Shown here: positions 12,858 through 55,126 of the stretch, piece by piece | How positions within the stretch are numbered: the stretch's first letter is position 1 | Layout of the letters: each line of letters opens with the position of its first letter | Origin: Ischnura elegans | Taxonomy: Eukaryota > Arthropoda > Insecta > Odonata > Coenagrionidae | Direction of reading: 5' to 3' | DNA length: 64,000 nt | Assembly (NCBI RefSeq): GCF_921293095.1 | Contig: NC_060257.1 | Span: 56,580,968 to 56,644,967, forward strand | Position numbers and translations under genes: made by a program | Notes under the pieces: generated by a model | Database searches by the model: none | Seen by the model: the letters and a program-made list of their open reading frames with translations, nothing else | Told to the model about the DNA's origin: nothing

Positions 12858-12891
12858 GACGTTTTCGCCGGCGTTGCAACACCGTCTTCAG
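12858..12891 (-). ncRNA. Hammerhead-like motif a
   Basis: On the - strand: core CTGAAGA, a hairpin CGGTGT/ACGCCG with loop TGCA, then GAAA, then a self-complementary ACGT and a GTC triplet. Two unpaired bases (GC) lie between the hairpin and GAAA, which departs from the standard ribozyme. It lies in a repeat related to the one at 41384-41547 (shared CTGAAGACG...CGAAA...GTCGT...GAAGATGAA). Confidence 0.45.
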
Positions 12892-13210
12892 GTTTCAAGT
12901 GCTTTTGGGCAAATCGTGTCAAGATTTTAAAATCCCAAACGTATTGTCCCCTTTGCTGGAAACACTTCAAACCTGTAGAAGCCTGCTACAGCACTAGCGA
13001 AACCGTAGTTCAAAGTTGAAACCAAGCTGCACCCACATTGATGCAAGCAACCAGAAAAATTCTCTCCAGAGAAAAAAGTGTCAAGATGAGAGTTTTCTGG
13101 GAGGCATACACAATAAAAATAGAAAAATCTCCAACAAAGCAACGGACAGAAGATAAGTGATACGTAGTTATCGGTAGCTCTAGAAAGATATGTTGGTATT
13201 TTATTGGAAA

Positions 13211-13268
13211 GCACTGGTAGTTGTAAATGAATTAAATGAGCACTGGTAGTTGTAAATGAATTAAATGC
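13211..13268 (+). repeat. Two-copy 29-bp tandem repeat
   Basis: The unit GCACTGGTAGTTGTAAATGA... occurs twice in direct succession with essentially no divergence, so the duplication is probably recent. Confidence 0.85.
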
Positions 13269-14244
13269 AATAACTCTTCATATTTTAAAAGTTTTAGTAG
13301 TACCGTATTTTAACTTCACACACATAAGGATTGTTAACAAATACAGATCAATAAAAAATCTTGGTAACCAACCAACAGAGACAAAACACAACTGAAAATT
13401 ACAAATGTCAACAAGATAAGACAACCGGAAGACTGCTGGCACCCACCACCTATAAATTGATGCTCAATGGAGGCAAAAAAGTCATTAGCTCTTCGTTCAC
13501 CCCATGAGATTGATCCGCCCCAACTTAAAGGCATACGCAGCCAGCAAGTAACCTACCTACGCTGATCGTAATTAAGCTCCAGTTCTTTGTTTAAGGTTCA
13601 GACCGATATGAAAAACCTTGCTTGATTATCCGCTAAATATTTCAACTGCCACAGCATTTCAGTCAGTGCACTGCTAAGAACATGAATGTTAAAAATGTTT
13701 CAAAGAAGTATTTACGACCTAACAAAATATTTAACGACTTTCCCTTCTGTAGGAGTTTGAAATCGCAAGATAATTGTTTTTGACGCTGACATACTACAAG
13801 CAAACTTAAAAAATGAAAATAATACCAAATGATTGTCAAATTAACTGACCGTGGGACTACTGACTTCACGTCACATATCACCGCAAAAGCTAATGCGAAC
13901 CATGGAAAAACCTAGGAAACCTATTAAAAATTCAGTGAAATATAAATTTTCTAAAACAACTAAAAAATTCAGTGAAACCTTACTTAAAGCAAGAAAAGCC
14001 GATAGGAGACCGTGATCAACAGATTGGCGCCAGCCAACCAAAATAACTAAAGGAGTGCAAATAGCACAATGAACTTCCTTTTGGTAATATCCGGTGGATG
14101 AAACAATTAAAAGCAGAGAACTGAGCTGTAAGTATTAATTAAAAATCGTATGTACTACAAAATACATGCAATATATCTTAATAGATACGAACCTCCATGA
14201 CGCATTGACTAAAACTACGTCTACGAGCCCTTTCTTCTTCGTTC
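13269..14244. other. Stretch without recognised features
   Basis: No supported gene or repeat. The open frames on the - strand here have no recognisable family signature. Confidence 0.5.
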
Positions 14245-14317
14245 GGCCGCGTGGCCCAATGGATAAGGCGTCGGACTTCGGATCCGAAGATTGCAGGTTC
14301 GAGTCCTGCCGTGGTCG
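14245..14317 (+). tRNA. tRNA-Arg (anticodon TCG)
   Basis: A 73-base cloverleaf. Acceptor GGCCGCG pairs with CGTGGTC (one G-U), with discriminator G at 14317. The D arm is GGCCCAATGGATAAGG. The anticodon arm is CGGACTTCGGATCCG with anticodon TCG. The T arm is GCAGGTTCGAGTCCTGC. The A box (TGGCCCAATGG) and B box (GGTTCGAGTCC) are intact. No intron is present and no encoded CCA, as expected for a eukaryotic gene. It is followed at once by TTTTT (14318-14322), the RNA polymerase III terminator. It closely resembles animal tRNA-Arg-TCG genes, so it is judged functional and decodes CGA. Confidence 0.95.
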
Positions 14318-14322
14318 TTTTT
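14318..14322 (+). terminator. RNA polymerase III terminator of the tRNA gene
   Basis: A run of T residues directly after the tRNA discriminator base. Confidence 0.85.
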
Positions 14323-14999
14323 GATGCAATTTTTCGTTAGCGTAATCTCTGCCCATTATGGATAGCTTTTTTGTAAGTGATACTGGGTGATTATTTCAAC
14401 GTTCAGTTCATTTTGAGAATATTTTTAAGCTTATATTTATCCTTACATAAACGAGAGTCAGATTGAGTGAAATCTGGGAAAGTACTCATTGTAATGTTTT
14501 TTATCGGCAGACCAAAATATTTTTGTGCCTTCATATGTTTCAGAAAATTTCAGCAAGCAATGATATCGTAATTGGTTGAATTTAAAACTACCAAGGTAAG
14601 GTTAATTTTTTCCGTAGTAATCCTATTTTATGCTTAAAATGTGAATGAAAAAGAATTTTGATGGAAAAACATATCTATTCCTTTTTAATCCATACGTATT
14701 ATGAAAACGTTATTTTTTTGGTTTTTGATGATATATTGGAAATTTTTTATAGGTTTGCAAATTCAACTGATGGTGACCATAGCTGTCAGATCTAACTGCA
14801 ATTTTATCTAACCAACAGAATCCTGCTTCCTTGATGACTGGAGGATCACACTTCTGTCGAAAATCACTGTGAGAACCTTAAGAAATCACTATCAATATGA
14901 TCATTTTCATTTCCCAAAGTACGAAGAGAGGCCTTCTTACGAAGCAATAGAGGTTCAATGAACTGTAATGCCCTTGTATTTAACTCTACCCGTGGAGAA
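14323..14999. other. Stretch without recognised features
   Basis: AT-rich; no supported gene, RNA or repeat seen. Confidence 0.5.
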
Positions 15000-15607
15000 A
15001 CAAGCATTCAACCTCGCATGTTTTTGCCCCTTGGACGTCATCTTTTCTCTAAAAAAGGGAATTTCGAATTATTATTTCGAACTATTAAATTAGATTAGAT
15101 TTCGAACTACTATATTATTTAGAATTTCGAACTATTAGCGGTATGTAATATCAGTAGCTATAGTCATAAAGGGTATCATTAGAATTTGTTTTCGTTTTTC
15201 TTGCCTTCTGTGGCTGTTGACTTCACGATGAACGGCTGGCTTATCTTCCCTCCCCTGAACGGCTGGTTAGTGGTAATACACCCCCTCCCCTTATATTCTC
15301 ATCGCTGAGCAGCTCGCAGGCTAATGGGAAACAGAGCATTTGGAAGGAAGGTGAGTATTCGTCCACCAACAACAACAGCTCAAGTCATGTTGGGCTACTT
15401 ACAGGGTACCTCCTTATATGTTATTCTCGCCGTGAGGATACAAGCCTCAAATCCAGCAGTATTTTGCCTCTGGGAAGCCAGATTTTCTCTAAAATGGACA
15501 TTTTCGAAGTCGGCTATTAGCGCCGTATGCTATGCCAGGAGGTATTTTCGTAAATGGTATCATTAGAATTTGTTTACGTTTTTCCCTGTCTTCTGTGGCT
15601 GTTGACT
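15000..15607 (+). repeat. Diverged tandem duplication
   Basis: About 15000-15225 and 15438-15607 are homologous in the same order: CAAGC...TTTTGCC, then ATTTTCTCTAAAA, then CTATTAGCG, then GGTATCATTAGAATTTG, then CTTCTGTGGCTGTTGACT. The spacing is about 385-440 bp. Copy 1 has an extra expansion of TTTCGAACTAT-type units. Confidence 0.75.
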
Positions 15608-15849
15608 GCTCATTAGGCCGGCCCTTATTTTTCAGAATTGCGAAAAGTTATGTTTTCCTGGCCTCAAAATGATCCAAATGGTGTTCATATTCACGTGTTA
15701 AAATTTGGTTACTTTAAAATAACGGCAACACGTGCCCCAAGGGCCCCAAGTACTGAGGACCCTCAATTGAGTTTTTTGGGGCCGAAAAAGCGCTATTACT
15801 ATGTAAAACGTAAAAGTAAAGTCCTTAAGGGTGTTCTATCCTAATTCAA

Positions 15850-16166
15850 AAATCCAAATTCAACCGTCGCCGGATTTTAGTTGCGAAGTCGGCCGCAACG
15901 GCCAGTGGAATGGGAAACCTCCTTGGGCGGAGGGGAGTAGTCGCTGAACGAAGGAAAAAAAGGAAAAGACGAGGGGTCGAGCTTCGCTCCGGCCGAAAAA
16001 AACACCCGGCGCTGTATCAAATTTCACTGCGGATGTGCGATATTGAGAGTGGTCGGGATTCTGAGGTTGATTTTTGCTCTCTGGTGGCATTAGTCCCATC
16101 TCAGCCACTCGGTTGACGTTTCTTGGAAGAATCCAAATACGCACGCTCTCGACGAGGCTGGTAAGT
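15850..16166 (+). promoter_or_regulatory. GC-rich, CpG-containing block with a splice-donor end
   Basis: This block is clearly richer in G+C and CpG than its surroundings and ends in GAGGCTG|GTAAGTA at 16160/16161, a near-ideal splice donor. It could be a non-coding first exon with its promoter. A second donor-like AAG|GTGAGT lies at 15352/15353. No convincing protein is encoded and no downstream exon could be identified. Confidence 0.3.
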
Positions 16167-16915
16167 ACGGCCGGCTTCTATGAAGAAAGGCGATTACTTG
16201 CATTGTTCTCTCCTTATTCGACTCCCCCTCGAACGGGAGAGCTGGTCAACGTTCTCATCTCAAAATTGTTAAGTGTTCTTCAAAGCATCGTAAAAGTCAA
16301 TTACGCTAACCGAAATGCGCGTACTTCGTGAAACTTTTTTTTAACGTACAACTTTACATTTTTACGTTATTCCTCAGTTTGAATGAAATAGTAATCACCC
16401 ACGTCCATTTGAAAACGTGTATTCAATACAGTTACTTTCCGAAACATGTTTATTCAGTAATCATAGCGCTACAGGGAGAACACTAATGAGAAATATGACA
16501 AATAATGAATGAACGAAAATTGATTTTCAATCATCTTTAATATTTATTGATTAATATGGTAAGAACATCATAAATTGCATATTGCATCAGACATCACATA
16601 CAGATTTAATAAAGCCAATAACCCTGAATATATCGCATCGGGTGATATTGACTTTTTCTTGGATGTTTTTTTTAACAAAATGATGCCGTTCGAACTAGAG
16701 TTTTTCTGGTCTCTAATTTCTTGTAATTCTGACTGAAGTAACGTTTAATATTCAAAGTGTTCCCTAGTTTTGCTGCAACCGACGTTTTGACCCGATGCGA
16801 CCGAAAGTGCTACAATTTATTCTCGCTACCGATCCATCGTGGAGACGATTAAAATTCATTCGCTCGAATTTGGCTTGATGAAATCGCCGATGACTCATCT
16901 TCCTGGAATACACCC
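16167..16915. other. Stretch without recognised features
   Basis: No supported gene, RNA or repeat; it may include the decayed 5' part of the piggyBac element that follows. Confidence 0.4.
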
Positions 16916-18345
16916 ATGTGCAAAGTGTGTATAATGAATCATCAGCATTTCGCCTCTTTTTGCGCAGAATTATTAGATATAATTGTGAAAATCACAAATC
17001 TCTACTTGAAGTCTGTTTCTGGAAATTATGCAAGAGATCGTGATACAAGCAGTTCAGTGAAGATGAATAACTGGCTCTTATTAGTCTCATTTTTCTCTCA
17101 GGTGCGTATAAAATTTCCCATGTTGATATTAGGGAGATTTGGAGCAAAGAAGTCTATCAAATTCTTTCCCGTACACTGAACTATCGGATTTTTTTCTACG
17201 GTGCATTAGTTTTTATGACCTCAGCACTAGACTAGAAAGTAAGAAAAGTGACTAGTAAGCTGCAGTTACTGAGTTCATTAATAAAATAACCAACAAATTT
17301 GAATTTGCAAATACACCATCAGAGTGCATCACGATCCTTGAGCAACTTATACCATTTCGAGGCCGATGTCCTTGAACGCAGTATCTATCAAAAAGCCAAA
17401 GAAATATGTTATTGAAGTCATTGCTGTGGTGGATGCTAGGAAATTTTACCTAAAAATTGAAATTTTTATGGGCAGGTAGCCAGATGCCCTTTCAAAGAAT
17501 CCAATTCACCTCATGAAATTGTCAAACGCTTAGCAGAGCACATTGACTGCAGAGGAAGAAATATTACCAGTGACAGTTGGTGTACCAGCATGCCTTTAAC
17601 AGTAGAACTTTATCAAAAAAAGATTGAATATGGTAAGGACGATGAGTAAGAACAAAGCAGACGTTCCTCCTGAATCTCCCCCAAGAAAAAATAGAACCTT
17701 ACATCATAGGCGAGGGGCAGGGGGGGGGGGCAATTGCACCCCCTCCAGAAGCAAAAATCGCATAAGTCCTTAAGCAAAATCGGTACTGAATTGAAAAGAA
17801 AGTATTCAACAAATTTCCTTTAAACCCACGAAAAACGATATGCATTAGTAGGTATAAGATATGTACTTAACTAAAATAAAAATATTTTTTCTATGAAATG
17901 ATATCAGAAACTAATAATGCGCTGTTATAATTTTCTTAAAATATTTTTTTCATTCACCTTTTCCATGCTAAAATGTCACAACTTGGCTTGCGCCCCCTTC
18001 TAGACTATGGCTTGCCCCCCCTAGTTATGACCCTGGGTATGCCCTTGTCTTACATCCTTCCCTTTTTGCTTTACTCCCGACATTTCCGCGTTGTAATACC
18101 TACGTTTCAATAAAATCCATGTAGTATTTATTTCTGCCATTATCCATGACGCAAGTATTACTGCCTCAAGTGGTAACAAAATGCTTCCTGGCTTTATATC
18201 ATTTTACAATACTATCAAGGGGGTGTGGATTCAAATGATCAGCTTTGCTTAAATTATCGCTGGACGGCATGAAAATCGGCCCTGATACCATTCCTGCTAT
18301 TTCGTTTTTAAAATGACCTCCTAAATCCGAATGTTAACTCTGTTT
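16916..18345 (+). pseudogene. Decayed piggyBac transposase (PGBD4-like), split by an insertion
   Basis: piggyBac transposases excise and insert at TTAA using three conserved Asp residues. Read across frameshifts on the + strand, the family blocks appear in order: ELLDIIVKITNLY, a leucine-rich LLVSF, IREIWSKE, the KLQLLSSLI helix, EQLIPFRGRCP, KKYVIEVIAVVDARKFY, GRNITSDSWCTSMPL and KNKADVPPE. After the insertion at 17706-18048 they resume with VVFISAIIHDA and YNTIKGGVDSNDQL. The Asp of the TIDEQ motif is Leu here (ILEQL), so the first catalytic residue is lost. Those in SDSW and GGVD are kept. Several stops and frameshifts make it inactive. Terminal repeats were not located. Confidence 0.85.
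17706..18048 (+). mobile_element. Non-autonomous hAT-like element with 8-bp target duplication
   Basis: 343 bp flanked by CTTACATC on both sides (17698-17705 and 18049-18056). It interrupts the piggyBac reading frame exactly there. The ends are G-rich (AGGCGAGGGGCAGGGG on the left; the right end, reversed, reads ACAAGGGCATACCCAGGG). An 8-bp duplication is the hallmark of hAT insertion. No transposase inside. Confidence 0.8.
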
Positions 18346-18349
18346 TTCT

Positions 18350-19440
18350 CCATCACTCACCATTTTCGGAAGAGCCTCCAATTTTTACCACTTTTCGGTC
18401 ATTTGGAGAAATTAAAAGGATTATTTTAGCATTTAAATTTTTTCTAGGGGTTTTGAGGAGTGCAAAATTCTGAAAAAATAATATTAAAGGTAAAGATGTA
18501 GATTTGAGGGGAATTAGTCTCCGTCAATTGTGTAAAAACGCATTGAAAATGACCAATTTTGCCATTTTTTCGCAAATTTTCACGTATTTAAAAATATTTC
18601 CAGCTTCTATTTCACATCATCCTCCCCGAAAGATAATAATACAAAGCAGCAAGAAACAGCAGTATTAATAAAAATATTTTGCTGTTTAGCATAGCAGCAA
18701 TAATTAAAATATGTAGCAATAGCTCGGAAGATTCACTTTACTACTCTGGCCCTCGCAGTGCCTCTCCCGCTCAGGCTTGGACGGCAATTTTCTTGATTTC
18801 GCAGCTAAAAAGAAAAAGTAATACTTTCTAGTTCCACGAAGAATGTAAAACTGAGATTTTATAATTTCATTGGATTAAAAAAGTATTCTTTCTCCTTAAT
18901 CATGGAATTCCGCAAAGTATCAGCCTCTAAAATCAATTATGTATATTGAAGTTGTCATCATCTTCCCTCGGTATACCTCTAGCGATCGCAGAGTCAACTC
19001 TTTCAGTGTTCTGGACAAGGATCCTTTTTTTCCAAGTAATTTAAATAGTGCAAAACAGTAAAAAATGTTTTACTCCGGCTTTTTCCAGGTGAATGTCAGT
19101 ATGTGGGCTTTAGTTGTGAATATTACCGTGATTTGGTACGTAATTAAATTACACGTGTGTAAAATCATCGTCATCGCTTCTGCTATGTTTGCGGTGAATT
19201 GACTAAAACATCGCAACAATAATTTCTTTCTTTAATTCTTTAAACTGCTTATAAATTTTTCTCTGGCTGCCAAATTGGCGGTCAGGGCTAGGATAAAGCT
19301 CCAAGTGTTTGCTGCACCACTTGTTACAGTAATTTGACCAAATACTTGGAGAAACTAATGTAACATATGGTACGAAGTTGCGCCTATATGGATGCCAATC
19401 TCTTACAAAAGGGCATAAAAATCTTTTCCAGTAGGACAAG
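18350..19440. other. Stretch without recognised genes
   Basis: AT-rich sequence with no recognisable gene, RNA or repeat. Confidence 0.45.
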
Positions 19441-19499
19441 AGCGCCAACACTGAAATTAATTTCTACGTAAGATGAAGGCTTGGTTTTTTTACTGTAAT

Positions 19500-20059
19500 T
19501 AAATGCATTGTTGATAGAAATTATGATGCCATGTGACCCAGAAAAATGGAGACTGTTTATGGATTCGTCAAAGACAAGCTTTGAAGTGGTCCTGTTGGCC
19601 AATGGGAATGAGTTACCTTCTATCGTATCTGCATACTCTGCTGATATGAAGGAGACGTACCGATATATCAGTTGAATCCTTGAGAATACTAATTATCGTG
19701 ATTATAATTGGTAAGTTTGCGCTAATCTGAAAGTTGTCGCTCTACTCACGGGACTGCAATCAGGCTTCACGAAATACTGCTGCTCCCTTGAATACAACAG
19801 CCGCGCCCGAGAAAACATTACATCTTACGGAAATGGCCTCTGCGAGAAAGCTTCACTCATGGTTATGAAAATGTCGCCCATGTTTCCCTGGTTCCGACAT
19901 TCCGAAAATATTCACTTGCCACCATTGCACATCAAACTAGGACAGATGAAATACTTTGTGAAAGCAATCGACAAGACAGGAGCTGAATTTCAATTTTTAA
20001 CTAAAATTCCTTGTCTTAGTGAGGCTAAAACCAAGGAAGAAATTCTTTTAGGTTTTTAG
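19500..20059 (+). pseudogene. Fragment of a transposon-associated ORF of unknown function
   Basis: Read with frameshifts on the + strand, the conserved blocks run EKWRLFMDSSKTSFEVVLL, NELPSIVSAYSADMKETY, LKVVALLTGLQSGFTKYCC, EYNSRAREN and HLPPLHIKLGQMKYFVKA. I recognise this order from ORFs that recur in many copies in arthropod and cnidarian genomes and are presumed to belong to mobile elements. I cannot name the superfamily with confidence. At least one stop and one frameshift separate the blocks, and the last open frame begins with Met at 19859 and ends at 20059. It is not expected to make a functional product. Confidence 0.55.
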
Positions 20060-20089
20060 AAGACTTATTTTAATTCCCACTTTCTTAGC

Positions 20090-20860: not shown

Positions 20861-21103
20861 TAACGGAAGGAGGAATATTTCTCGCAATTTTTCAAAGTAA
20901 ATTAGTAAAGGCATTAGAAATAATTTATCCCCTACGAAATTAAAGCGGGCCAAATATTGGCAAAGTCGAATCCATTAGTTCGGAATCAGACATAACTTAG
21001 TCCCAAGAAGATAAATTGAATGAATAACACGCCATTTGTACGTTGAAGATGTTGTTATATCATTGAAATCTAGGTCACAATAACTTTTCTTATAATCGTG
21101 GAA
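20861..21103. other. Short stretch without recognised features
   Basis: No gene or repeat identified. Confidence 0.5.
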
Positions 21104-21772
21104 AATAGGGTAGTTTCCTATTATTTTTTTATTGCCTTAATCGAAAGATTATTATTCCTGGAGTACGTATTTCGCGCTTTTAGATTTTTAAATGACGATA
21201 TCTATTTTTCGCGATTAAATGAAAAGTGAAAATTTTCAAGCGCGCGAAAACGCGACGCTTAAGTATGAATGTCGGGAAATATCTCCGTACGTCGTATTTC
21301 TGGTTCCCCCTCCCGCCCGGTGAGGTGACCTTGAGACGAGGCTTAGCTCTGATACGTCGCAGGATGCTAGCGGATAGCTGAGTACCTTGCTGAACGGTAG
21401 CGCTTGGCTTAAAAAAGGTTTATTAATACCTTATCAAACGAAGAAAACTTTCCGACATTAGCCAGTTTTAATAGGTGATTATTAAGACATGTTTCCCTGA
21501 GCTCTGTGCCTCATGCTTGCATTGGTAACCTCAGACGATGCATAACTCCTATCCTCTCGTGTAGAAACTAGGTCCCTGTGACGTCATGCGGAGTGGAATC
21601 GCATGGGCGCCAATCTGGCCTTTTTCAAATGAGGATAAAATTTGACCCTTGCCATTCGTCTAAACCGGTATTTCAAAAACCAAATAATTTGTGTATTATG
21701 AATACACTAATGGTGGGTAACGAATCGCAATCAATGCCTTTCGTTTTCTTTGATGAAGGAAACTACCCTATT
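21104..21772 (-). mobile_element. MITE family 2 (AATAGGGTAGTTTCC ends), copy R
   Basis: 669 bp with terminal inverted repeats AATAGGGTAGTTTCCT and GGAAACTACCCTATT. It is the same element as at 32654, 33596 and 37274 but in the opposite orientation. It contains a GACGTCA palindrome and a conserved block of CGCG-rich sequence (GCGCGCGAAAACGCGACG). An open frame from the GACGTCA block to the TIR recurs in other copies but is frameshifted in one, so it is probably not a gene. No clear target duplication could be defined. Confidence 0.9.
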
Positions 21773-21850
21773 GCAAGTGTTTGTTTCAATATGGAAAAAT
21801 TCCGCTCCATAACGTTTGAATCTTCGGATTTTATTTGTAAGTTGAATTAA

Positions 21851-32403: not shown

Positions 32404-32653
32404 ACTTTTCTCGGCGATTTCCCTCTCGATGGCCATGAATGCAATTGAATTGTGCATCTCGGTGGGCCTCCCCCGCCGCCAATGTAACATGGTGACTAAC
32501 GACCAGGAGGACGTGAAGAATAATGGCCACTGGGCACTCTCGAACGGCTGGCCCAGTTTCGCCACTGCATCAAGTATTATTTGGGGCACCGTGACCAAAA
32601 ACATAACATCTGATGAACCTCCGTCCACAACCCAGGAGATGCTTTCATTTTCC
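32404..32653 (-). other. GC-rich open frame of unknown identity, truncated by a MITE
   Basis: On the - strand an open frame of about 83 residues (including MLHWRRGRPTEMHNSI and a stop after GRFSL) stands out because its base composition and amino-acid mix look coding-like, unlike the AT-rich neighbours. Its upstream part is replaced by MITE copy 32654-33320. I do not recognise the family. It may be a captured or relic exon. Confidence 0.25.
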
Positions 32654-33320
32654 AATAGGGTAGTTTCCTTCATCAAAGAAAACAAAAGGCATTGATGGCG
32701 ATTCGTTACCCACCATTAGTGTATTCATAATACACAAATTATTTGGTTTTTGAAATACCGGTTTAGACGAATGGCAAGGGTCAAATTTTATCCTCATTTG
32801 AAAAAGGCCAGATTGGCGCCCATGCGATTCCACTCCACGTGACGTCACAGGGACCTAGTTTCTACACGAGAGGATAGGAGTTATGCATCGTCAGAGGCTA
32901 CCAATGCATGCATGAGTCACAGAGCTCAGGGAAACATGTCTTAATAATCACCTATTAAAACTGGCTAAGGTCGGAAAGTTTTCTTCGCTTGATAAGTTAT
33001 TAATAAACCTTTTTTAAGCCATGCGCTACCAGACAGGAAGGTACTCAGCTACCCGTTAGCATCCTGCGTCCTATCAGCGCTCAGAGCCTCGATCAAGGTC
33101 ACCTACCAGGCGGGAGGGGGAACCAGAAATGCGTCGTACGGACTTTTTCCCTTCATTCCTACTTACGCGTCGCGTTTTCGCGCGCTTGAAATTTTTCACT
33201 TTTCATTTGATCGCGAAAAATAGATATCGTCATTTAAAAATCTAAAAGCGTGAAATACGTACTCCAGGAGTAATAATCTTTCGATTTAGGCAATAAAAAA
33301 TAATAGGAAACCACCCTATT
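32654..33320 (+). mobile_element. MITE family 2, copy 1
   Basis: 667 bp, AATAGGGTAGTTTCC to GGAAACCACCCTATT, nearly identical to copies 2, 3 and R. Confidence 0.9.
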
Positions 33321-33502
33321 ATGATAGGTAATAAACTTTGTCCTTTCCGAACTAGGTGTTGAAATAGGAGAAGGCATAAAACTTTAGCATGTTTCAGAAT
33401 ATGTGGATATGAAGCATGATTCAGAATGAGTGGATATGATGGAGAATGTAGAATGATATTAAGTCCTTGGAGTTTGGGCCAAAAATGCAAAAGTGATTTG
33501 TC

Positions 33503-33532
33503 TACGTTTCGGTTTATTTAAACCATCCTCAG
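33503..33532 (-). ncRNA. Hammerhead-like motif b
   Basis: On the - strand: CTGAGGA, T, perfect hairpin GGTTT-AAAT-AAACC, GAAA, then ACGT-type self-complementary bases and a GTA triplet. No stem I pairing was seen. Confidence 0.45.
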
Positions 33533-33595
33533 TGCTTACCTATTTTTACACGATTGCTTATTTATATTTATTATAACTGCCTAGTACCTATCCAT

Positions 33596-34261
33596 AATAG
33601 GGTAGTTTCCTTCATCAAAGAAAACGAAAGGCATTCGTTGCGATTCGTTACCCAATATTTGTGTATTCATAATATAAAAATTATTTGGTTTTAGAAATAC
33701 CGGTTTAGACGAATGGCAAGGGTCAATTTTATCCTCATTTGAAAAAGGCCAGATTTTCGTCCATGCGATGCCACTCCACGTGACGTCACAGGGACCTAGT
33801 TTCTATACGAGTAGATAGGAGTTTTACATCGTCTGAGATTACCAATGCATGCATGAGGCACAGAGCTCAGGGAAACATGTCTTAATAATCACCTATTATA
33901 ACTGGCTAAGGTCGGAAAGTTTTCTTCGTTTGATAAGGTATTAATAATGCTTATTTAAGCCAAGCGCTACCAGGTAGCAGGGTACTCTGCTACCTGCTAG
34001 CATCCTGCGTCGTATCAGCGCTCAAAGCCTCGCCCCAAGGTCACCCCACTTGCGGCAGCGGGAACCAGAACGACGTCAAACGGAGATTTTCCGGCATTCA
34101 TACTTAGCCGTCGCGTTTTCGCGCGCTTGAAAATTTTCACTTATCATTCAATCGCGAAAAATAGATATCGTCATTAAAAATCCAATAGCGTGAAATACGT
34201 ACTCCAGGAGTAATAATCTTTCGATTTAGATAATAAAAAAATAATAGGAAACCACCCTATT
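33596..34261 (+). mobile_element. MITE family 2, copy 2
   Basis: 666 bp, same orientation as copy 1 and only 275 bp from it. A 1-bp deletion breaks the recurring open frame, which argues that the frame is not a gene. Confidence 0.9.
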
Positions 34262-37235: not shown

Positions 37236-37273
37236 ATTATTATTACTATCATCACTTTAAAAGTAAACTTTTA

Positions 37274-37942
37274 AATAGGGTGGTTTCCTTCATCAAAGAA
37301 AACGAAAGGCATTGATTGCGATTCGTTACCCACCATTAGTGTATTCATAATATACAAATTATTTTGTTTTAGAAATACCGGTTTAGACGAATGGCAATGG
37401 TCCATTTTTATCCTCATTTGAAAAGGGCCAGATTGGCGCCCATGCGATGCCACTCCACGTGACGTCACAGGGACCTAGTTTCTATACGAGAAGATAGGAG
37501 TTATACGTCGTCTGAGGTTACCATTGCATGCATGAGGCGCAGAGCTCAGGGAAACATGTCTTAACAATCACTTGTTAAAACTGGCTAAGGTCGGAAAGTT
37601 TTCCTCGTTTGATAAGTTATTAATAATCCTTATTTAAGCCAAGCGCTACCAGTCAGCAGGGTACTAGGCTAGCCGCTAGCAGCCTGCGTCGTATCAGCGC
37701 TAAGCCTCGCCTCAAGGTCACCTCGCAGGGCGGGAGGGGGAACCAGAAATACTTCACGCGGAGAGACTTCCCGACATTCATACTTAAGCGTCGCGTTTTC
37801 GCGCGCTTGAAAATTTTCACTTTTCATTTAATCGCGAAAAATAGATATCGTCATTTAAAAATCTATAAGCGTGAAATACGTACTCCAGGAGTAATAATCT
37901 TTCGATTTAGGCAATAAAAAAATAATAGGAAACCACCCTATT
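37274..37942 (+). mobile_element. MITE family 2, copy 3
   Basis: 669 bp, AATAGGGTGGTTTCC to GGAAACCACCCTATT; its left TIR has the G variant normally seen at the right end. Confidence 0.9.
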
Positions 37943-38299
37943 ATCTACTGGAAGACTCTAATTTTAAGGCAATATAAGTTTTTTTATTGTTTCTTTTACT
38001 GCTTTTAGATGTTTTAAACTTCTTGCAAAATAAATATGGAGAACCTGCTGATGAGCCTGTTTGGGCTCAGAAGGTCTCCATATTGTAAAAATATATTTTT
38101 TTATTCTTAAATATTGTAATTTCAGAGTATTTTCTCTTTTCTCTGATTATGAAGTGTTTCTTATATAGTGAAAAGTGTATTAAGAATTTGTAAAGGGAAT
38201 GTTTTTAATGTATTATAATTTGTTAAAAAAAAATCAACTTGTCATTAAGGAATAAATATCTACACATATATTAGCCATGAAGCATTTTTGAAAGGTGCC

Positions 38300-42627: not shown

Positions 42628-42995
42628 TAGATTAAAAGATACAGTATCCGGCGTGATACGGTGGAAATCTTTGATATTCAGATTATTAAAAGAACTTGTC
42701 TGTTTCCACACTCTTTTATTTTCACCGACCATGGTTTCGGCAACTTCCGCCATTATCAAGGTAATGGCACAAGGCATGACCTTGATAATGGCAGAAGTTG
42801 CCGAAACTATGATCGCTGAAAATAAAAGAGTGTGGAAACAGACAAGTTCTTTTAATAAGCAGAATATCAAAGATTTCCACCGTATCACGCCGGATACTGG
42901 CACAAGGCATGGCCTTGATAATGGCACAAGTTGCCGAAACCATGGTCGGTGGAAATAAAAGAGTGTGGAAACAGACAAGTTGTTTTAATAAGCTG
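42628..42995. mobile_element. Foldback element with 120-bp arms and AATCTT target duplication
   Basis: AATCTT at 42622-42627 and 42996-43001 flanks 368 bp. Left arm 42642-42761 and right arm 42780-42899 are inverted near-copies, and 42900-42990 repeats half an arm in direct orientation. Three hammerhead-like cores of the U3/A8 type lie at the arm ends. Confidence 0.8.
42727..42947. ncRNA. Hammerhead-like motifs e, f, g (U3/A8 type)
   Basis: 42727-42761 (- strand), 42780-42814 (+) and 42913-42947 (+). Each is TTGATAA, T, GGC-loop-GCC, GAAA, then CCATGG (CTATG in f) and GTC (ATC in f). In e the flanks can pair as stem I: TTACC before the core with GGTGA after the triplet. Confidence 0.5.
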
Positions 42996-43060: not shown

Positions 43061-43084
43061 TATAAATATTTTTATTGGTACACT

Positions 43085-43117
43085 ACCATGGTTTCGACGC
43101 TCCCCGTAATCCTCAGG
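43085..43117 (-). ncRNA. Hammerhead-like motif h
   Basis: On the - strand: CTGAGGA, T, a weak ACG/CGT hairpin, GAAA, CCATGG and a GTA triplet. Confidence 0.35.
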
Positions 43118-46335: not shown

Positions 46336-46450
46336 TCATTCATGAATTGCCATGAGAAAAAAAAACCCTGGACCGGGAATCAAACTACGGACCCTTGGCT
46401 TTCCAGGCCAATGTGCAGACCACTACGCTATCCAGTTTCCTTAATTCCTA
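46336..46450 (-). repeat. SINE family with ATTGCCATGAGAAAAA tail, copy 1
   Basis: On the - strand the A-box-like GGATAGCGTAGTGGTCTG and the B box GGTTTGATTCC analogue (AGTTTGATTCCCGG) have tRNA-like spacing, followed by CCAGGG and TTTTTCTCATGGCAATTC. Confidence 0.75.
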
Positions 46451-46708: not shown

Positions 46709-46710
46709 AA

Positions 46711-47601: not shown

Positions 47602-47763
47602 AATGAAAATGAAAAAGCAGGAGCAATTTCCACAATTTACATTTATTAATACGACCGGTTTCGGTTTTCAGCATCATCAGGTACCTGATGATGCTGAAAA
47701 GCGAAACCGGTCGTATTAATAAATGTAAATTGTGGAAATTGCTCCTGCTTTTTCATTTTCATT
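47602..47763. repeat. 162-bp near-perfect palindrome
   Basis: Arms 47602-47682 and 47683-47763 are reverse complements with one mismatch and no spacer, centred on CAGGTACCTG. Each arm carries a hammerhead-like core. The following tail (TATGTCACGTTTCCACTCC...CGCCTGAAAC) recurs at about 52935-52970 and 59427-59465. Confidence 0.95.
47653..47712. ncRNA. Hammerhead-like motifs j (-) and k (+)
   Basis: Copy k (47684-47712, +): CTGATGA, T, GCT-GAAA-AGC, GAAA, CCGG, GTC. Flanks GGTAC and GTATT can form a 5-bp stem I with two G-U pairs. Copy j (- strand, 47653-47681) differs by the one arm mismatch, which breaks its central hairpin. Confidence 0.5.
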
Positions 47764-47803
47764 ATGTCACGTTTCCACTCCATCTCGCCTGAAACCTCAG
47801 ACT

Positions 47804-49437
47804 ATATACAAATAAACAAAGGGGAAAACGATATATGACACGATCTTATGGAGCTGCGGCAGAATTTCATGCAAATGCTGGAAGTACACCGTTCTACATT
47901 TTTTGCGCCGATAGTAAGTACACTAGTACCGATATGCTTCAGTTCGTCGGAATGGCATATGATTACAAAGACTTGGCCGAGCTGTTTCTCACAATAGGCT
48001 CACAATGGGCGGCCGAGGATCTATAAACGCCTATACAACGTACAGTGTACACTTTCTCCACAGATAGTCATAAAAAGGAACTTGCGTTTTCGCAGGAAAA
48101 AACTCGCATGCTCCAAATGAATTTTTAATGGGAAGGAAAGGCCTCTCATGTTAGAAACAGCTATGTACATGACCCTATCCGTGACCTTCGACGTTGGGAA
48201 TCAATGTCATTATAATTAGCAATCGTGTGATTGTGAAAGGAACAGACGTATTCCTTGGAATTGAATACGTTGGTCCTTGAAGGAAGCATGGGTGTGCTCT
48301 CATTACGGAAAATCATCAAAATGACAGCAAAGTTGCTATTATCGAGGGAACTAGGAGAAGAGAACGATATAGAGTGAGTCAGAAATTCTGGAATATACGG
48401 AGGTGGCTATAAAAATAGAGTAACTGACACCGTTAATAGGAAAAATTAACAAAAAGAGGTGATTCGTACGTACCTACGATTGGCTCTAGTTGTCTCTTTA
48501 TTCTGAGTTCTTGTTTTTATTACCCTGCTGGTAAGTTATCAGATTAAATTGTTCAATCGGGCATGAATATGCTTCAGTAAAATTTTTGCAGATTAAATGA
48601 AGCGATGTAAATAAACAAGAAGAAACAACGTTTAAACACTTGAATCTTACCTTGTTACCTGTTCTGTGCAAGACTCATACAGGAAAGTCCTAATGAGTGT
48701 ATATACGCTATCGATCTGAGTGATTATCAGATCAACAAAATTTCATTAGATACTCTATAGCAACATGTAGGACGCAATATGAAAAATATAAGACTTTATT
48801 CGAAATTGTTGGAAAAAGAGAAATAAAAGTTTGATCCATAAAAATGACGCACCTATGTTTGTATGCATTTTTCGAAGGCTGAAACCATGCAAAACTACTT
48901 TTATATAAAGTTTTTTTCGTAAAAGAATGGGGCGATATTGAACGCCGTTTAAATGAAGACAATAATTTAAAGTTTATATTTTTATTTTTCGAATTTGTCG
49001 TCTCAAACAGTTGTTTTACATAATTAATAAATTTCAATACGTGCGCCCATGGTTTCCCAACAAGAGAGAAACCTGGCGTCGACATTAGCCTGATCCTAAC
49101 GAAAGGCGTCAAGGGGACCACGGCTTAACGTCCCATCCGACAGACGGAGTGCTGCACTTAAAGTGCCCTCCTCAAGGCACTCAAAATCTCTGTCACCCTA
49201 TCCCTACTATCCTCCTATAAAATACTGAAATCGCACCATTATTTTACGATAACCAGGTATAATTAGCGCGTTTAATGAATATATAGAACTAGATATTTAC
49301 TTATAAGAACTTCTACTTTGAAAAAAACCCAAAAGTTGATGAACTTGATGAAAGTTGATGACGTCACAAAACCATAACAAGCGTTTCACCGCATCTTAGC
49401 TACTCCTTGGTCTTGTGTATAGGCCTCATGTGTTTCT
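47804..49437. other. Stretch without recognised genes
   Basis: A 63-codon frame at 47835-48026 has no recognisable family and a donor-like GATAGTAAGT inside; not supported as a gene. Confidence 0.4.
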
Positions 49438-49620
49438 TTCCTGGATATAGACAGTTACTTATACCACTTATTTTATAAGAGCGCGACCCGGGTTTCAATG
49501 AGTAATCATCATCATCAGGCGCTAGTTATTAATTAGTGCCTGATGATGATGATTACTCATTGAAACCCGGGTCGCGCTCTTATAAAATAAGTGGTATAAG
49601 TAACTGTCTATATCCAGGAA
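49438..49620. repeat. Palindrome with perfect 83-bp arms and 17-bp loop
   Basis: 49438-49520 and 49538-49620 are exact reverse complements. Perfect identity implies recent formation or gene-conversion-like repair between arms. Hammerhead-like cores sit next to the loop. Confidence 0.97.
49485..49573. ncRNA. Hammerhead-like motifs l (-) and m (+)
   Basis: Copy m (49539-49573, +): CTGATGA, then a hairpin with ATGA/TCAT stem, GAAA, self-complementary CCCGGG and a GTC triplet. AGTGC before and GCGCT after the motif can pair as a 5-bp stem I. Copy l is its mirror on the - strand. Confidence 0.5.
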
Positions 49621-52199
49621 ATAATGGAATACCACAAAGTTAACCAAGAGTTAGTGAATTTTGCTCATGTGTTTCGTTTTTCATTAGACTCTGGCCTAGT
49701 GAAATGTTCCTCCTGACAGGGAAAACGAAAATAAAACTGTAATAACGTCACAATATCATTAATAGTGGGCGATAACTTTTACGTTCTTATTTTTAAATTG
49801 TTTGAAAATGTCGGAATGAGGAAGATTTTTTAGTATTAATTTATCTTGCTTTCCTATGTCATGAATTCATTTACCGAATACGAAGACAAGATAAATTCGG
49901 GCCCGATAGAACAACCCCTTTGTAGCAGCATATTTTGAAGTTCTTATGAAATTGTTGCGCAATTCGTTTATCAGACAAAAATCTTGAAGTTTGTAAAGTA
50001 AAAATTATGTACATGATGTTAGCTGACAGGAGAATTGAGTGCAGAGATTGGTCAAATGCAAAGCACTATTGACCAACCATGATAATGATGATGAATTCCA
50101 ATAGTAAAATTTAGTAACAGAAATCAAGATAAATAACGACATCAAAATTATCCTTTAGTGTAAATACCACCAAAATTTCTGGGAAACGAAGGCTACTAAT
50201 TATTATCATTTTTCAGAACTACTGGATGTCAAACGAGATTTCAAGTCTAGAGGGAAAGCTTGTCCCAAGGATATTACGACCGCTCGGTAACCCAACATCG
50301 ACAGAAACATAAGCTGTTCTATGATAATCCATTGGATCAGTGTCGGGGTACAATAGCTAAATTACTTTCACCTAAAATTTTGCAAAAACGGGTAAATTCT
50401 TTAGTTTAGCACGTTTTTTCTTCTCTCATCCTTGTCCTCGATCTGAGCTGGGCTGAGAGTGGATTACATTAGATTTACCAAGGAATTCCCCCTAAGAATG
50501 AAGTATGGGCAAATGATATACGTTATAGCTACCATGAAATCAAGTATGCATGTTTCAGGATCGTTACTGGCTTAGCCGCAGCCAACAACTTAGCTCGTTA
50601 TATCCGCGGAGCTAAAATTACAATTTCTATACGGGGATACCTTTAGTGCCCACTCATGTTCGTGGAGCTGGTATCCTCGACACATATTTTAAATGACTAC
50701 TCAAAAGGTGTGTGGCACTATGAAACCCCCACGCGTTACCAAGGAATATTAGGGCTATTTGAGGTAATACGAGACATTCCTAGTTTGAGAGTGAAAGTTA
50801 GGGCAGAAAGTTCGTAGTGAAAGAGTCGTAAAAAAAGATTAGGTAAGACGGTCCTAAAAAAGAAGACGAGAGAAAGTCAAAGGTACTGAGTTTGAGACAG
50901 AGTTTCCGGAATTTTAAGAATCAACTATCGGAACGAGCACCTTCACGTGCGCTAGCGTCATGGACATGTCAAATGTCAGGAGTAATACGTGTCTTTTGCA
51001 CGTCACCAGGAGTATGATTTGAGGAAATTTCGCAGTACTACCAGGAGAGAGATATTCGGCATACTCTGAAATAGTTACTTTAATGTCTCATTATTCATTT
51101 AGACAAGAGAATGGCAACTAATAAAAAAATATTTTTGGTCCATAATTGACAGTATCTTACAAGTATTTAATAGTAAGAAATAAACTCGGGATTTTACGAA
51201 CATTTAGCGAGCCTGGATCAGCAATTAATTACCTTTATGATAAACCATTCGACACACTCTGGTAAGGTTATTGCAATGTCTCATTATTCATCAATATAAG
51301 AGACTGGAAAACAAAAGGAAAATATTTTTGGTTAAAAAGTGAGCCTGAATCTAAAGAAAAAAATACCTTGTTTTATGATAGGTCGTTGGCATAGACCCAG
51401 ATAGTGTCTTGATCGATTACTATGAACTGTACTCGGTAACTTAAGGGTCAAGTAGTTTTCTGAATTGTTATTCTCTTATCCTCGTATTTGTGTATCATAC
51501 TCACGCAAGATTAAGCCTAAAAGCACACTAAAAATAATGATTATATTACAAATCCCTATTTGTAAATTTATTTTGTTTCAATATACGGTTTTACATTTTT
51601 TAGGTATGAAAATGTGGTGGTTAATAGGTTGTTGAAAAGAATAGGGTGGATAGTTGAATTTGGGGAATGAAAGAGATAGCCTTAATTGTTTGACGCTACA
51701 AAGCCTGCACTTTATTTCGACAATAAATTAGTAATTAAAAAAATAGTATTTTATACGGTAATTATATCTTGCCCCCTCATATATTTCTTCTCGGATACTT
51801 ATAATTACCTTGAAGAGGTTAAAATAGATACATGTATGGATAAATAAAAATAAATGAATTTCGGCAATGACACGACATAAATACAATTCAGTACATAACC
51901 ATCTAGTCTAAATGGAATTATGACTTTGCCCGTATCAAGTAGGGTTGTAAAGAAGAAATCCGTAAAAAGTGATCAATGTGAAATTTTCTGGAAATTCACA
52001 TGATAAACTTTCACCGGACAGGATATTGAGCCACAGGTCTTAAAATAGAAAACTTTTATTGCATTTGCTCTCTCAATATTGAAAACCCTTGCTTGAGTGG
52101 TTTTAATGGTTAAGGTGAATTAGGTTTCAAACGGATGAAATAATGGCTACTCTAAGGGCGAATTGATGATTTCGCTTTTGACATTTTTAAAACGTTAGA
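49621..52199. other. Stretch with little recognised content
   Basis: A LINE 3'-terminal remnant (GACAGGAGAATTGAGTGCAG ... ACCATGATAATGATGATGA) lies at 50025-50095; otherwise nothing was identified. Confidence 0.4.
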
Positions 52200-52560
52200 G
52201 ATCCTCTCTGTTTTTCTCTTAGTTTCGTGGTCGCGAGCAGAGTGCCTTCAGGTCACTCCCAGCTTCTCCACCCGTCCTTCTGCCCATGGGCGAGACCTTG
52301 CACTTACAGCCCCTCCCACTCCGCTATATGGACCGTGAGGCACAGCTGACTGGATCTATCTGCTTCTCTCCTCATCCCCAACTACGTACGTTCGGACGCC
52401 GCTGAAGAATATCTCCTCCCCATGACCCATTCACGACCACCTCTTTCCAAATCTCGCCGATTTTTTTATTCCTTTTCGTCGACCGAAGCATTGTATCACG
52501 TTCGCCCGAACTTTAAGACTTCCAGCGACCCCGTGCGAATGAAAAAAGAATTATATTCAA
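52200..52560. other. GC-rich segment of unknown nature
   Basis: Richer in G+C than its flanks and pyrimidine-rich on the + strand; no coding frame or RNA recognised. Confidence 0.3.
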
Positions 52561-52759
52561 AAACGCCGGGCTGAGAAACAAAGCATATGTCACTTTTTCA
52601 TATGATATTTTCAAGATATACTCTTCCTTTTATACTTCATCGACTGACGCTCACAAAAATATGTCTTTCGCGCAATATTTTCTGGAAATTTCATACGAAA
52701 ATCATTACAAAATACGGACAGCAAATGGTAATTTCTACACTTTAACGTAAACTACGAAC

Positions 52760-52970
52760 GATGGTTTCGACACTATGTCATTTTGAAGTTGTATATAATT
52801 GAGTGTAGAAACCATGTTCAATAGTGGAGTTTCGGCAATGACACGGCATAAATACAATTCATTACATAACCATATAGTGCGGAACTTATTATTAACGCGC
52901 GGAAATTATCATTTTCTGTTTTATTTTATCAGGAATATGTCGCATTTCCACCTCGTTAAGCCTGAAACGA
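52760..52970. repeat. Decayed repeat of the foldback/hammerhead-like family
   Basis: GATGGTTTCGACAC...TGTCATTTTGAAG is a degraded motif (- strand), and AATATGTCGCATTTCCACC...GCCTGAAAC is the family tail seen after the 47602 palindrome. Confidence 0.5.
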
Positions 52971-55091
52971 TTTCATAAAACTCCAAGATACACTCTTCTT
53001 TTTATAATTCATAGACTGAGGCACTAAAATATTCCGTGCCATATTTTTTGGACATTTCGTATGTAAATCTGCTTATTTTTACAGGTTTTCGTGGCGATGT
53101 TTGCCCAACCTGGTAACATTTTGATTACCTCTATAAATCTTTCATTATCTGATCAATCGGTAAGATGCTCTAGTTGTTTTTACGTTGGTGAAATATATTC
53201 AATGCTTTTATGAGAGCTTTTATGATAATTAATCTTACCATTTTGCACCTCTCAAAAGGGAGATTCGCTCCATAAAATCCCTGAAGACAGAAGCGGCGTC
53301 CAACGTAGGAGGCTTAGTTATCGGATTTTAGGTTCTGGACAGATATTGTTGGGAATTAATTTTCTAAAGATTTAATGGAAATAAAATCAAACCGCCAATA
53401 ATCCTGCTGTATTTCAACTCTGCACCTCATCTAAAAGTATTTAATACAATTTTTAAAATTGGTTAATATCGGGAAAGATGGGTACCGTGGGAAAGTTTTA
53501 TCCACCAGTTGAAGTCTCCGGCTGAATGTTGGCTCAAATGTTCATCTTTAGATGGTTTTTACACTGTAGTGGTTGCTTAAAGAAAATGATAAGTAAATGA
53601 TGTGGTTTTTTAACGTATAATATATTTAAATAATGTATAATATTTCAGATAAGAAATATTCTATAGGAACTAGAGCTGGTCACGTGCTCGCGTGTACCAC
53701 AAAAATAACCAAAGCCTCCATTTTGAACATTTTAAGGGGGTATAAAGATAATATTTGATATTTTTGGATTTTTTGTATAATCTTTGGTTGCCCACGTCAC
53801 ATAATGCAAAGAGCCTGTGTGAAAACTTTCACCCCTCAATATCTTCTGAAAGTGTTCGAGTATACACAAGCGAATCAGCTCTATCAATGAAAGATTTAAG
53901 CTACGCATTATTTTGTGTGGTAATGTATAATGGTGAATTATGTATATGTAACAATAATTATGATTGAACAGAAAATTTTAACATTTTAAAAATGTCTTGA
54001 AATTTAATTTCTCCCAGAAGCAGCTCTGATTAAGAACGGGTTAAGATGGGGTTACTTTGTTCCATCAGGGTAACTTTGGCCTACACTAATAAGAGATGTG
54101 ACCTAATAGTGCCTGCCGTTTGTATCCTATCCCTTACTCCATTGCTGGGAATTTTCCCCAAACTTTTGAAATCGTTTGTAATTTTACTACATTACACGGA
54201 AAGTTGAAACAAAAATAGCCATATCTAAGACTATACCATTTAGTGTGTTTTCCATGCTCTACCGTCTTGAAATTCTTCTATTTGTAACATTCGTAACTTC
54301 GCTTCCAATTACTTCGCATCATGGACTTAAGAGAACTCGTAATCCCTCTGGATCGATTGTATTTTCTATTTTGTGATGTCGCATTACTCAGTGAGCTATC
54401 ACCGTGAAATTTTCAGCGTGTGCACAGTGCGCTTACGTCAAAATTAGTCTGTTCCTCAAATATAGAAAGAATATCAATCGGGGAAACGACTCGGTAATTT
54501 TTTTAAAATTTGAAATAATGCAAATGTTGAAAAAGGCACATTTCATTTATCCTCGAATTTCTAATTCATTGCTTAAGGTTTAGGGAGCATTTCGTCACAA
54601 AAATTGATCGATAGAGCATAATGTATGTGCACCCTTTTAATGAGGAGATAAGTAACAGAATAAAAAAGCAATATTAGCGAGACAACGGAATAACTCAATC
54701 AAAACTAGCAATAAAGAAGATAGGTAAATAGTAAATGAAGGCCAAAAGAAATTAGAGGGACAGTAAAACTGAAGATTAATAAAGCAGACTTTATTCAGAG
54801 TAAACTCCTTTACCTATCAGAGATACGGGATCTGACGAAATGTAATTGGAAAAAAATTAGGAGTCTCAGAGATGGACTTTCTGACTTGTAGCTGCAGTAA
54901 ATCAAAACTACATAAAAAAAATATTATAAGAAAAATCATGTATTTTGAATGGAATATAAAAATTGTGATATGAAGGCTAGAATGGTATAGAAATAATTAG
55001 CAGTAGCGGGCGTAACTTGGTGGAAATCCATAATCATAGGAGTAGACGAAATAATAACTTTGGTATTTCAACATGGTAATTTATTGAGACC
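52971..55091. other. AT-rich stretch without recognised genes
   Basis: No supported gene, RNA or repeat. Confidence 0.45.
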
Positions 55092-55126
55092 GACCATGGT
55101 TTCGTTACAGCGTAACATTATCAAGG
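55092..55126 (-). ncRNA. Hammerhead-like motif n (U3/A8 type)
   Basis: On the - strand: TTGATAA, T, perfect hairpin GTTAC-GCT-GTAAC, GAAA, self-complementary CCATGG and a GTC triplet; ACC/GGT could form a 3-bp stem I. Confidence 0.5.

What the first reader, a model, noticed from the sequence alone, without database searches (positions are those of the whole stretch)
12858..55126. Dispersed hammerhead-ribozyme-like motif with C3-G8 to U3-A8 covariation
At about ten loci (12858, 33503, 36323, 41464, 42727-42947, 43085, 43226, 47653/47684, 49485/49539, 55092) I see one syntax: CUGANGA, small hairpin, GAAA, short self-complementary stem, N-U-H. Position 7 varies (U, G, A), as it does in hammerheads. 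Positions 3 and 8, which pair in the folded ribozyme, are either C/G (CUGAUGA, CUGAGGA, CUGAAGA) or U/A (UUGAUAA, UUGAGAA), never mixed. Triplets are GUC, GUA, AUC or GUU, all permitted. The short self-complementary stem III (CCGG, CCCGGG, CCATGG, ACGT) would favour dimeric ribozymes, as reported for Penelope-like elements. Caveats: most copies have one extra unpaired base between A9 and stem II, stem I is seen only at some loci, and the copies are related by descent.
Basis: partly seen in the sequence, partly recalled or inferred. Interest (0 to 1): 0.8.

Follow-up and report, generated by a model that had tools for sequence, protein, structure and literature searches.

The report
Penelope retrotransposon hammerhead ribozyme copies
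The scattered motif is the small hammerhead self-cleaving RNA that Penelope-type jumping genes carry at the start of their messages; thousands of copies keep one core base pair as either C-G or U-A, which was already known to happen in nature but is seen here at large scale.

Summary
The motif is real: 8 of the 13 listed positions are complete minimal hammerheads, 2 are reduced forms, 3 are weak. They are ends of Penelope-like elements (PLEs). In the window's own 1.72-Gb genome the same motif flanks an ORF with reverse-transcriptase and GIY-YIG domains, and one window copy runs into the PLE ORF start inside a 12-bp target duplication. Genome-wide, in the CCATGG stem-III class, positions 3/8 are U-A 3700, C-G 1343, U-G 110, C-A 107 (reversed-pattern controls 0). 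A reverse-transcriptase tree rejects one origin for all U3-A8 families; a further switch is likely.

It is not new in kind: PLE hammerheads, palindromic stem III for dimers, and natural C3-G8 to U3-A8 covariation are published. Added here: scale and recurrence; an extra U after A9 in 96 of 100 sampled copies; families with U4A or U4C cores; a TATA box 31-38 nt upstream in 15 of 18 rows, with truncated copies ending 2-5 nt before the core, placing the ribozyme at the RNA's 5' end; in one family, no sizeable class of copies starting at the cut; and a possible second covarying helix around the start codon. Cleavage was not tested.

The parts
42727..42759 (-). minimal hammerhead, core TTGATAA (U3-A8), stem III CCATGG, GUC
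42782..42814 (+). diverged hammerhead copy (U3-A8), stem III palindrome broken
   Evidence: sequence; lies in inverted-repeat arm 42775-42899
42915..42947 (+). minimal hammerhead, TTGATAA, CCATGG, GUC
43084..43116 (-). minimal hammerhead, CTGAGGA (C3-G8), CCATGG, GUA; stem II partly decayed
   Evidence: not passed by the filter
47602..47763 (.). head-to-head PLE tail pair, 81+81 bp inverted repeat, 99% complementary, 5' ends meeting at the stem I strand GTAC
47653..47680 (-). minimal hammerhead, CTGATGA, CCGG, GUC
   Evidence: not passed by the filter
47685..47712 (+). minimal hammerhead, CTGATGA, CCGG, GUC; same motif as RT-bearing copies L072/L073/L076
49437..49663 (.). head-to-head PLE tail pair (family A) between the two target duplications
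   Evidence: inverted repeat 49434-49528/49530-49624
49425..49436 (+). left copy of 12-bp target site duplication CTCATGTGTTTC
49664..49675 (+). right copy of the target site duplication
49485..49518 (-). minimal hammerhead, CTGATGA, CCCGGG, GUC
49540..49573 (+). minimal hammerhead, CTGATGA, CCCGGG, GUC; 5-bp stem I
49600..49662 (+). N-terminal fragment of the PLE ORF, 95% identical to L021
   Evidence: E 9e-07
55092..55124 (-). minimal hammerhead, TTGATAA, CCATGG, GUC
33503..33532 (-). reduced hammerhead-like copy, CTGAGGA, stem III CG
   Evidence: by eye; similar sequences in the genome
36323..36354 (-). reduced hammerhead-like copy, TTGAGAA, stem III CG
   Evidence: by eye

Best explanation
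The motif is the minimal, dimer-type hammerhead ribozyme of Penelope-like retrotransposons, here often on short 5'-truncated 'tails'. Shown: it lies between the pLTR and the ORF of elements encoding RT and GIY-YIG; bases 3 and 8 are kept paired as C-G or U-A; stems I and II covary; stem III is palindromic. Inferred: transcription starts 2-5 nt before the core, so the ribozyme is the first ~35 nt of the RNA; two strands join through stem III, and cleavage after GUC would free the ORF body or split tandem transcripts. Also inferred from copy structure: insertion uses RNA uncleaved at that site, with reverse transcription begun near the ORF start from both nicked target strands, giving head-to-head pairs. 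The confidence given is for the identity; the inferred steps are less sure.
For: Genome enrichment: 17401 vs 3067 reversed-pattern control; 5522 vs 15 with 3/7/8 free. In that search's 100 listed places: U-A 66, C-G 24, C-A 2, U-G 0, other 8. Fixed-frame counts: U-A 3700, C-G 1343, U-G 110, C-A 107, controls 0; independence would give about 1050 of each mixed type. 53-copy alignment: 9 pairs 87.6% paired vs 67.4% shuffled; 3/8 alone 92.5% vs 74.1%, 0/500 shuffles. PLE identity: identical motifs 2589 bp apart flank an ORF with RVT_1 (E 2.5e-7) and GIY-YIG (2.8e-6); other RT families carry the motif after the protein match. All U-A families as one clade rejected, p-AU 2.7e-7. TATA-like box starting 31-38 nt upstream in 15 of 18 rows vs mean 0.33, maximum 4, in 500 Markov shuffles. 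Truncated copies lose pLTR identity at about -2 to -5 in F1 (n=9), F2 (n=9), F4 (n=5) and C (n=3). F2 leader alone 847 copies vs leader plus ribozyme 3' half 851. 25 of 25 close pairs head-to-head in the listings.
Against: No Rfam hammerhead model matched at E<=10, in the window or in 9 PLE loci. One extra base before stem II in nearly all copies. Folding energies of 4 window copies are no better than shuffles (z -0.61, -0.53, -0.05, +0.88). No cleavage data. Families with near-identical copies carry cores expected to be weak (U4A, U4C). PMC11167929 found a PLE ribozyme dispensable for insertion in vitro and inactive without protein. Families A and D and one F5 copy lack a TATA box at the usual distance; family A truncations fall near -11. 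Same-orientation close pairs also exist (two in the listing; tandem L021). No motif was seen after the protein match in 8 loci read. F, H and I as a single U-A clade is not rejected (p 0.21).
Confidence: 0.9

Rival explanations
1. The motif is only a conserved DNA or RNA end needed for reverse transcription or protein binding; 3/8 pairing reflects a non-catalytic fold, and cleavage no longer matters.
For: Insertion templates of family F2 appear uncleaved; families E and G changed U4; PMC11167929 reports that insertion does not need cleavage.
Against: Core and GAAA recur in elements found by RT homology that differ in every helix, with U4 changed only in E and G and GAAA broken in one copy (L134). 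Caveat: the scan asked for TGA, A9 and GAAA; E and G were found by eye. The invariance is fixed by the pattern and proves nothing.
Confidence: 0.2
2. The copies are a foldback/MITE-like DNA transposon whose palindromes mimic hairpins.
For: Nearly perfect inverted repeats of 81-125 bp arms; a 12-bp duplication.
Against: One arm ends in the PLE ORF start; single and tandem copies exist; 5' boundaries match a transcription start, not a terminal repeat.
Confidence: 0.03
3. Covariation at 3/8 is an artefact of shared descent: one ancestral double change, then copying.
For: Copies are related; F, H and I (U-A) as one clade is not rejected (p 0.21).
Against: All U-A families as one clade is rejected (p-AU 2.7e-7); G (U-A) groups with D (C-G) at 100/99. 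By leader, F6 (U-A, L016 + copy) is nearest to F5 (C-G): 0.73-0.75, next 0.67. Mixed states are rare, and U-G and C-A nearly equal, as decay from both parents predicts.
Confidence: 0.07

Closest known systems
Hammerheads of Penelope-like elements (Cervera & De la Pena 2014; Lunse et al. 2016; neither held, known here from PMC6155905, PMC6466107 and recall)
   Same: Minimal hammerhead in the pLTR, near-absent stem III, dimer cleavage, same element class
   Different: Whether those papers list the U3-A8 majority, the extra U or the U4 variants could not be checked
Natural U3-A8 hammerheads and palindromic stem III repeats (Perreault et al. 2011, PMC3088659; section 8 and passages read)
   Same: C3-G8 covaries to U3-A8 in several natural examples; Aedes repeats with palindromic stem III proposed to act as dimers (legend of Fig. 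S8)
   Different: Here thousands of copies in one genome, at least two and probably three switches, two of them judged on an RT tree
PAc, Poseidon element of Anolis (PMC11167929; passages read)
   Same: RT+GIY-YIG ORF, hammerhead at the pLTR-ORF junction, C3/G8 tested by swap (partial rescue), both target strands extended, internal initiation near the ORF start
   Different: In PAc the ORF starts at stem II and the cut lies 26 bp inside it; here the cut precedes the start codon by about 49-67 nt (my count on seven family sequences)
Penelope of Adineta vaga (PMC3846280; passages read)
   Same: Head-to-head inverted pLTRs most frequent, 8-10 bp TSDs, TATA plus TCACT initiator in the pLTR, tail into the ORF start
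   Different: No hammerhead mentioned there (0 occurrences of the word)

Membership tests
Hammerhead ribozyme | Core CUGANGA...GAAA...UH with pairing of 3 and 8 | tested here: met
   8 of 13 window positions; genome counts; pair test
Hammerhead ribozyme | Three stems around the core | tested here: met
   Stem I 81.8%, stem II 90.2% of cells paired, with changes on both sides; stem III only as a palindrome, intermolecular by prediction in some families
Hammerhead ribozyme | Match to Rfam hammerhead models | tested here: not met
   None at E<=10 in the window or 9 loci; I take this as a limit of the models (no stem III, extra base), which is inference
Hammerhead ribozyme | Self-cleavage after NUH | not testable with these tools
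   needs transcripts
Penelope-like element | ORF with RT and GIY-YIG domains | tested here: met
   for L021; open frames of 824-855 aa among matches
Penelope-like element | Tandem/partial-tandem or inverted pLTR arrangement with TSD and tail | tested here: met
   tandem 2589 bp; head-to-head 25 of 25 in two listings, two same-orientation pairs in a third; 12-bp TSD
Penelope-like element | Hammerhead at the pLTR-ORF junction | tested here: met
Dimeric hammerhead | Self-complementary stem III that stabilises a two-strand form | tested here: inconclusive
   Dimer more stable than two monomers by 3.8-10.4 kcal/mol in 8 of 8, without a shuffled control; only some predicted dimers (A, F) show the hammerhead fold with joined stem III
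Retrozyme | Non-autonomous element with canonical type I/III hammerheads | tested here: not met
   Family members encode RT and GIY-YIG; stem III is a short palindrome

The most novel reading that the evidence does not exclude
In this genome the PLE hammerhead is the transcript's 5' end itself (stem I strand at the start site) and works with a second conserved RNA helix, 5'UTR GUGGAAA with UUUCCAC of the Phe-His codons, that encloses the start codon. The pair would form a 5' switch in which cleavage removes the capped leader from RNAs to be translated or degraded, while uncleaved RNA is the insertion template; selection keeps the 3-8 pair (either C-G or U-A) for that switch.
Probability: 0.3. 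Interest if true: 0.6.

Novelty: new member of a known kind. Interest (0 to 1): 0.4.

Why it matters
Thousands of natural copies with two alternative 3-8 pairs, and repeated switches between them, give a comparative dataset for a core contact otherwise known from crystals, mutants and a few natural cases. The copy structures also speak to an open question about Penelope elements: whether the ribozyme acts before, after or apart from reverse transcription. In the one family counted, inserted templates were as a rule not cleaved, in agreement with the Anolis in vitro work.

Tried and rejected
Rfam covariance models at gathering and E<=10: no hammerhead hit. GACGTTTC (stem III CG) class: 1562 vs control 491, listed places mostly background by eye, so not used for 3/8 counts. 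A longest-helix scan for the second helix was weak (own mean 6.5 pairs, cross-family 6.0, shuffled 5.5); only the anchored test gave a signal (78 of 96 Watson-Crick vs 68.3 permuted, P 0.0011). The 12 families there were those whose ORF start was in hand, and arms were anchored by eye on GTG...CAC/CAT. Foldback DNA transposon reading rejected. A miRNA reading of 42710-42831 (MIR7526, 65.7 bits, threshold 110, both strands) is taken as a palindrome effect, by inference. Paper searches: 'hammerhead ribozyme' with 'U3-A8' gave 0 papers, miR-7526 gave 0. Cervera 2014 not held; Lunse 2016 not held (one search used a DOI from memory that was not that paper's). A genome search with RF00163 never got an answer. 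A custom covariance model was not built.
Full report
WHAT THE WINDOW IS. The window is G000:C12:56580968-56644967 of a 1.72-Gb assembly in 110 contigs, by size and content a eukaryote.

CHECK OF THE OBSERVATION. In all it gives 12 rows with C-G or U-A at 3/8, against a mean of 0.7 (maximum 4) in 30 first-order Markov sequences; the four others (10177-, 16409+, 58010-, 62315+) look like chance. The 3/8 states of the eight are C-G at five (43116-, 47680-, 47685+, 49518-, 49540+) and U-A at three (42759-, 42915+, 55124-). Six of the eight pass a filter on stems I and II. Two further positions (33503, 36323) have a core and stem II but a two-base stem III and no 1.1-2.1 pair; three (12858, 41464, 43226) do not hold up (by eye). 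All eight have a T between A9 and stem II. No Rfam hammerhead model matches at E<=10, nor in nine genomic loci. Four window copies fold no better than shuffles.

GENOME-WIDE TEST OF THE COVARIATION. CTGANGAN{4,24}GAAACC occurs 17401 times against 3067 for the reversed pattern. With 3, 7 and 8 free and stem III fixed as CCATGG: 5522 against 15. Of the 100 places listed: U-A 66, C-G 24, C-A 2, U-G 0, and 8 others (U-U 2, A-A 2, C-U, G-G, A-G, C-C one each). Four counts on one pattern frame: U3-A8 3700, C3-G8 1343, U3-G8 110, C3-A8 107, all controls 0. The mixed states are 217 of 5260; independence would give about 1050 of each. Their near-equality is what decay from both parent states predicts. 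These counts cover only the CCATGG class with T after A9 and four of the 16 combinations at 3/8; samples the rest. In 53 distinct fetched copies (14-nt stem II and CCATGG only; other lengths left out) the stem I, stem II and 3/8 pairs are 87.6% paired against 67.4% in shuffles and at most 53.5% when slid; the 3/8 pair alone 92.5% against 74.1%, 0 of 500 shuffles. Slides of -3 and +3 for 3/8 alone are also highly paired (98.1% and 92.5%) but show no double change.

WHAT CARRIES IT. Downstream of the motif different subfamilies share a leader and an ORF start of the type M..FH.V.P.T; in the F2 copies read I saw no clear start codon. L021 (C1:1569500-1576500) has two identical motifs 2589 bp apart around a reading frame with one stop; the piece after the stop matches RVT_1 (E 2.5e-7) and GIY-YIG (E 2.8e-6), the piece before it no Pfam family. 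Related proteins are abundant (14791 first-look candidates, 109 scored), some in open frames of 824-855 aa. In RT families reached from L021 and L066 by protein search, the motif sits 40-407 nt after the protein match: A, B, C, D, J with C3-G8; F, H, I with U3-A8; E with C3-G8 but core CAGA(U/C)GA, that is U4A; G with U3-A8 but U4C (E and G by eye). Misses: no motif was seen in the stretch read in L062 and L063 or in L124, L125, L126, L128, L130, L131 (where about 430 nt after the match were held); L134 has a B-type motif with GAAA changed to GGAA. In the window, 49600-49662 encodes the PLE ORF start at 95% identity, and the head-to-head pair there lies between two copies of CTCATGTGTTTC (49425-49436 and 49664-49675).

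HOW OFTEN 3/8 SWITCHED. A tree of 19 RT fragments puts G (U-A) beside D (C-G) at 100/99, apart from F, H, I (U-A), which group with C and J (C-G) at 87/90 in an unresolved fork. One clade for all six U-A rows is rejected (p-AU 2.7e-7); F+H+I as one clade is not (p 0.21); the count of changes on the tree is 4. Branches between families are long and the tool warns of long-branch joins. In the CCATGG class, F6 (TTGAGAA, L016 + copy) is nearest by leader to F5 (CTGAGGA, L106, L109): 0.75 and 0.73, next 0.67; this rests on about 120 nt and no tree. The window copy 43116 has an F5-like core and upstream flank, but its leader agrees for only about 15 nt (identity 0.43-0.50). So at least two switches, probably three.

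WHERE THE RNA STARTS. A TATA-like box begins 31-38 nt before core position 3 in 15 of 18 rows, against a mean of 0.33 and a maximum of 4 in 500 Markov shuffles of the same flanks; the other 8-nt bins hold 0-2. Exceptions: A, D and one F5 copy. F1 and F5 have two rows each. 5'-truncated copies keep family identity only to about -2 to -5 in F1, F2, F4 and C, and to about -11 in family A. Truncation was called by ungapped identity, so a few rows (L091, L015 -) may be pLTR copies with an indel, and most family A rows marked truncated are pLTR variants; about five are informative. In the palindrome at 47602-47763 the two copies meet at GTAC, whose G lies 29 nt after the first base of that family's TATTTAA. 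I infer that the transcript begins in the 5' strand of stem I. The rotifer paper describes a TATA box 20 bp from a TCACT initiator in a Penelope pLTR (PMC3846280), compatible with GTTCAC|CTGATGA here.

CLEAVAGE AND INSERTION. For family F2 the leader after the cut site occurs 847 times (<=2 mismatches in 35) and the leader together with the 3' half of the ribozyme 851 times (<=3 in 47). One family was counted. Close pairs (<3 kb) are head-to-head in 25 of 25 (180 places on contig C1 from the listings). The listing shows five more of that kind and two in the same orientation (C8:25148472/25148899, C19:25135719/25136167), and L021 is a tandem. PMC3846280 already calls head-to-head the most frequent arrangement, and PMC11167929 shows both target strands cleaved and extended, internal initiation near the ORF start, no need for ribozyme cleavage in insertion, protein-assisted cleavage, and partial rescue by C3G/G8C.

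A SECOND HELIX. About 15-25 nt after the cut site a GTG(G/A)NNN arm faces the Phe/Tyr-His codons of the ORF start. In 12 families 78 of 96 anchored positions are Watson-Crick against 68.3 when arms are exchanged between families (P 0.0011); one column shows A-T, T-A, G-C and C-G. F3, F5 and F6 pair less well. Anchoring was by eye, and an unanchored scan was weak. It is a lead.

RELATION TO WHAT IS KNOWN. PMC3088659 (section 8) states that C3 and G8 covary to U3 and A8 in several natural hammerheads and that such swaps were active in vitro; a supplement legend describes Aedes repeats with palindromic stem III as possible dimers. PLE hammerheads lacking helix III are reviewed in PMC6155905; dimeric hammerheads of PLEs are cited in PMC6466107. 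The Cervera 2014 and Lunse 2016 papers were not held, so I cannot say whether the U3-A8 majority, the extra base or the U4 variants are in them. An extra base after A9 is recalled, from memory, for the CChMVd hammerhead.

VERDICT. A real and well-supported Penelope hammerhead family; the covariation is genuine and recurrent, but its kind is published.

Noticed in passing
L064, L065, L074 (family G) and L071, L075, L077, L079, L081 (family E): PLE families whose hammerhead core has U4 changed to C (with U3-A8) or to A (with C3-G8); U4A is expected to be weak or inactive, yet the copies are nearly identical to each other.
   Followed up: partly
leader and ORF start of 12 PLE families, e.g. L066 downstream of the motif, L102, L002: Possible covarying helix between the 5' leader (GTGGAAA) and the Phe-His codons, with the start codon in the loop (P 0.0011 by exchange of arms, anchored by eye).
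   Followed up: partly
window 42710-42831, both strands: Rfam MIR7526 matches at 65.7/59.5 bits (below its threshold of 110); the family may itself derive from such a PLE palindrome.
   Followed up: no
window 46338-46457/46781-46900; tRNA-like matches 46368-46435(-) and 57456-57527(-): Inverted repeats with tRNA-like sequence that ARAGORN did not call, perhaps tRNA-derived SINE copies.
   Followed up: no
window 21098-21789 and 37257-37948, with further copies at 32650-34022: Long dispersed inverted repeats (692 nt, 91%), another repeat family.
   Followed up: no
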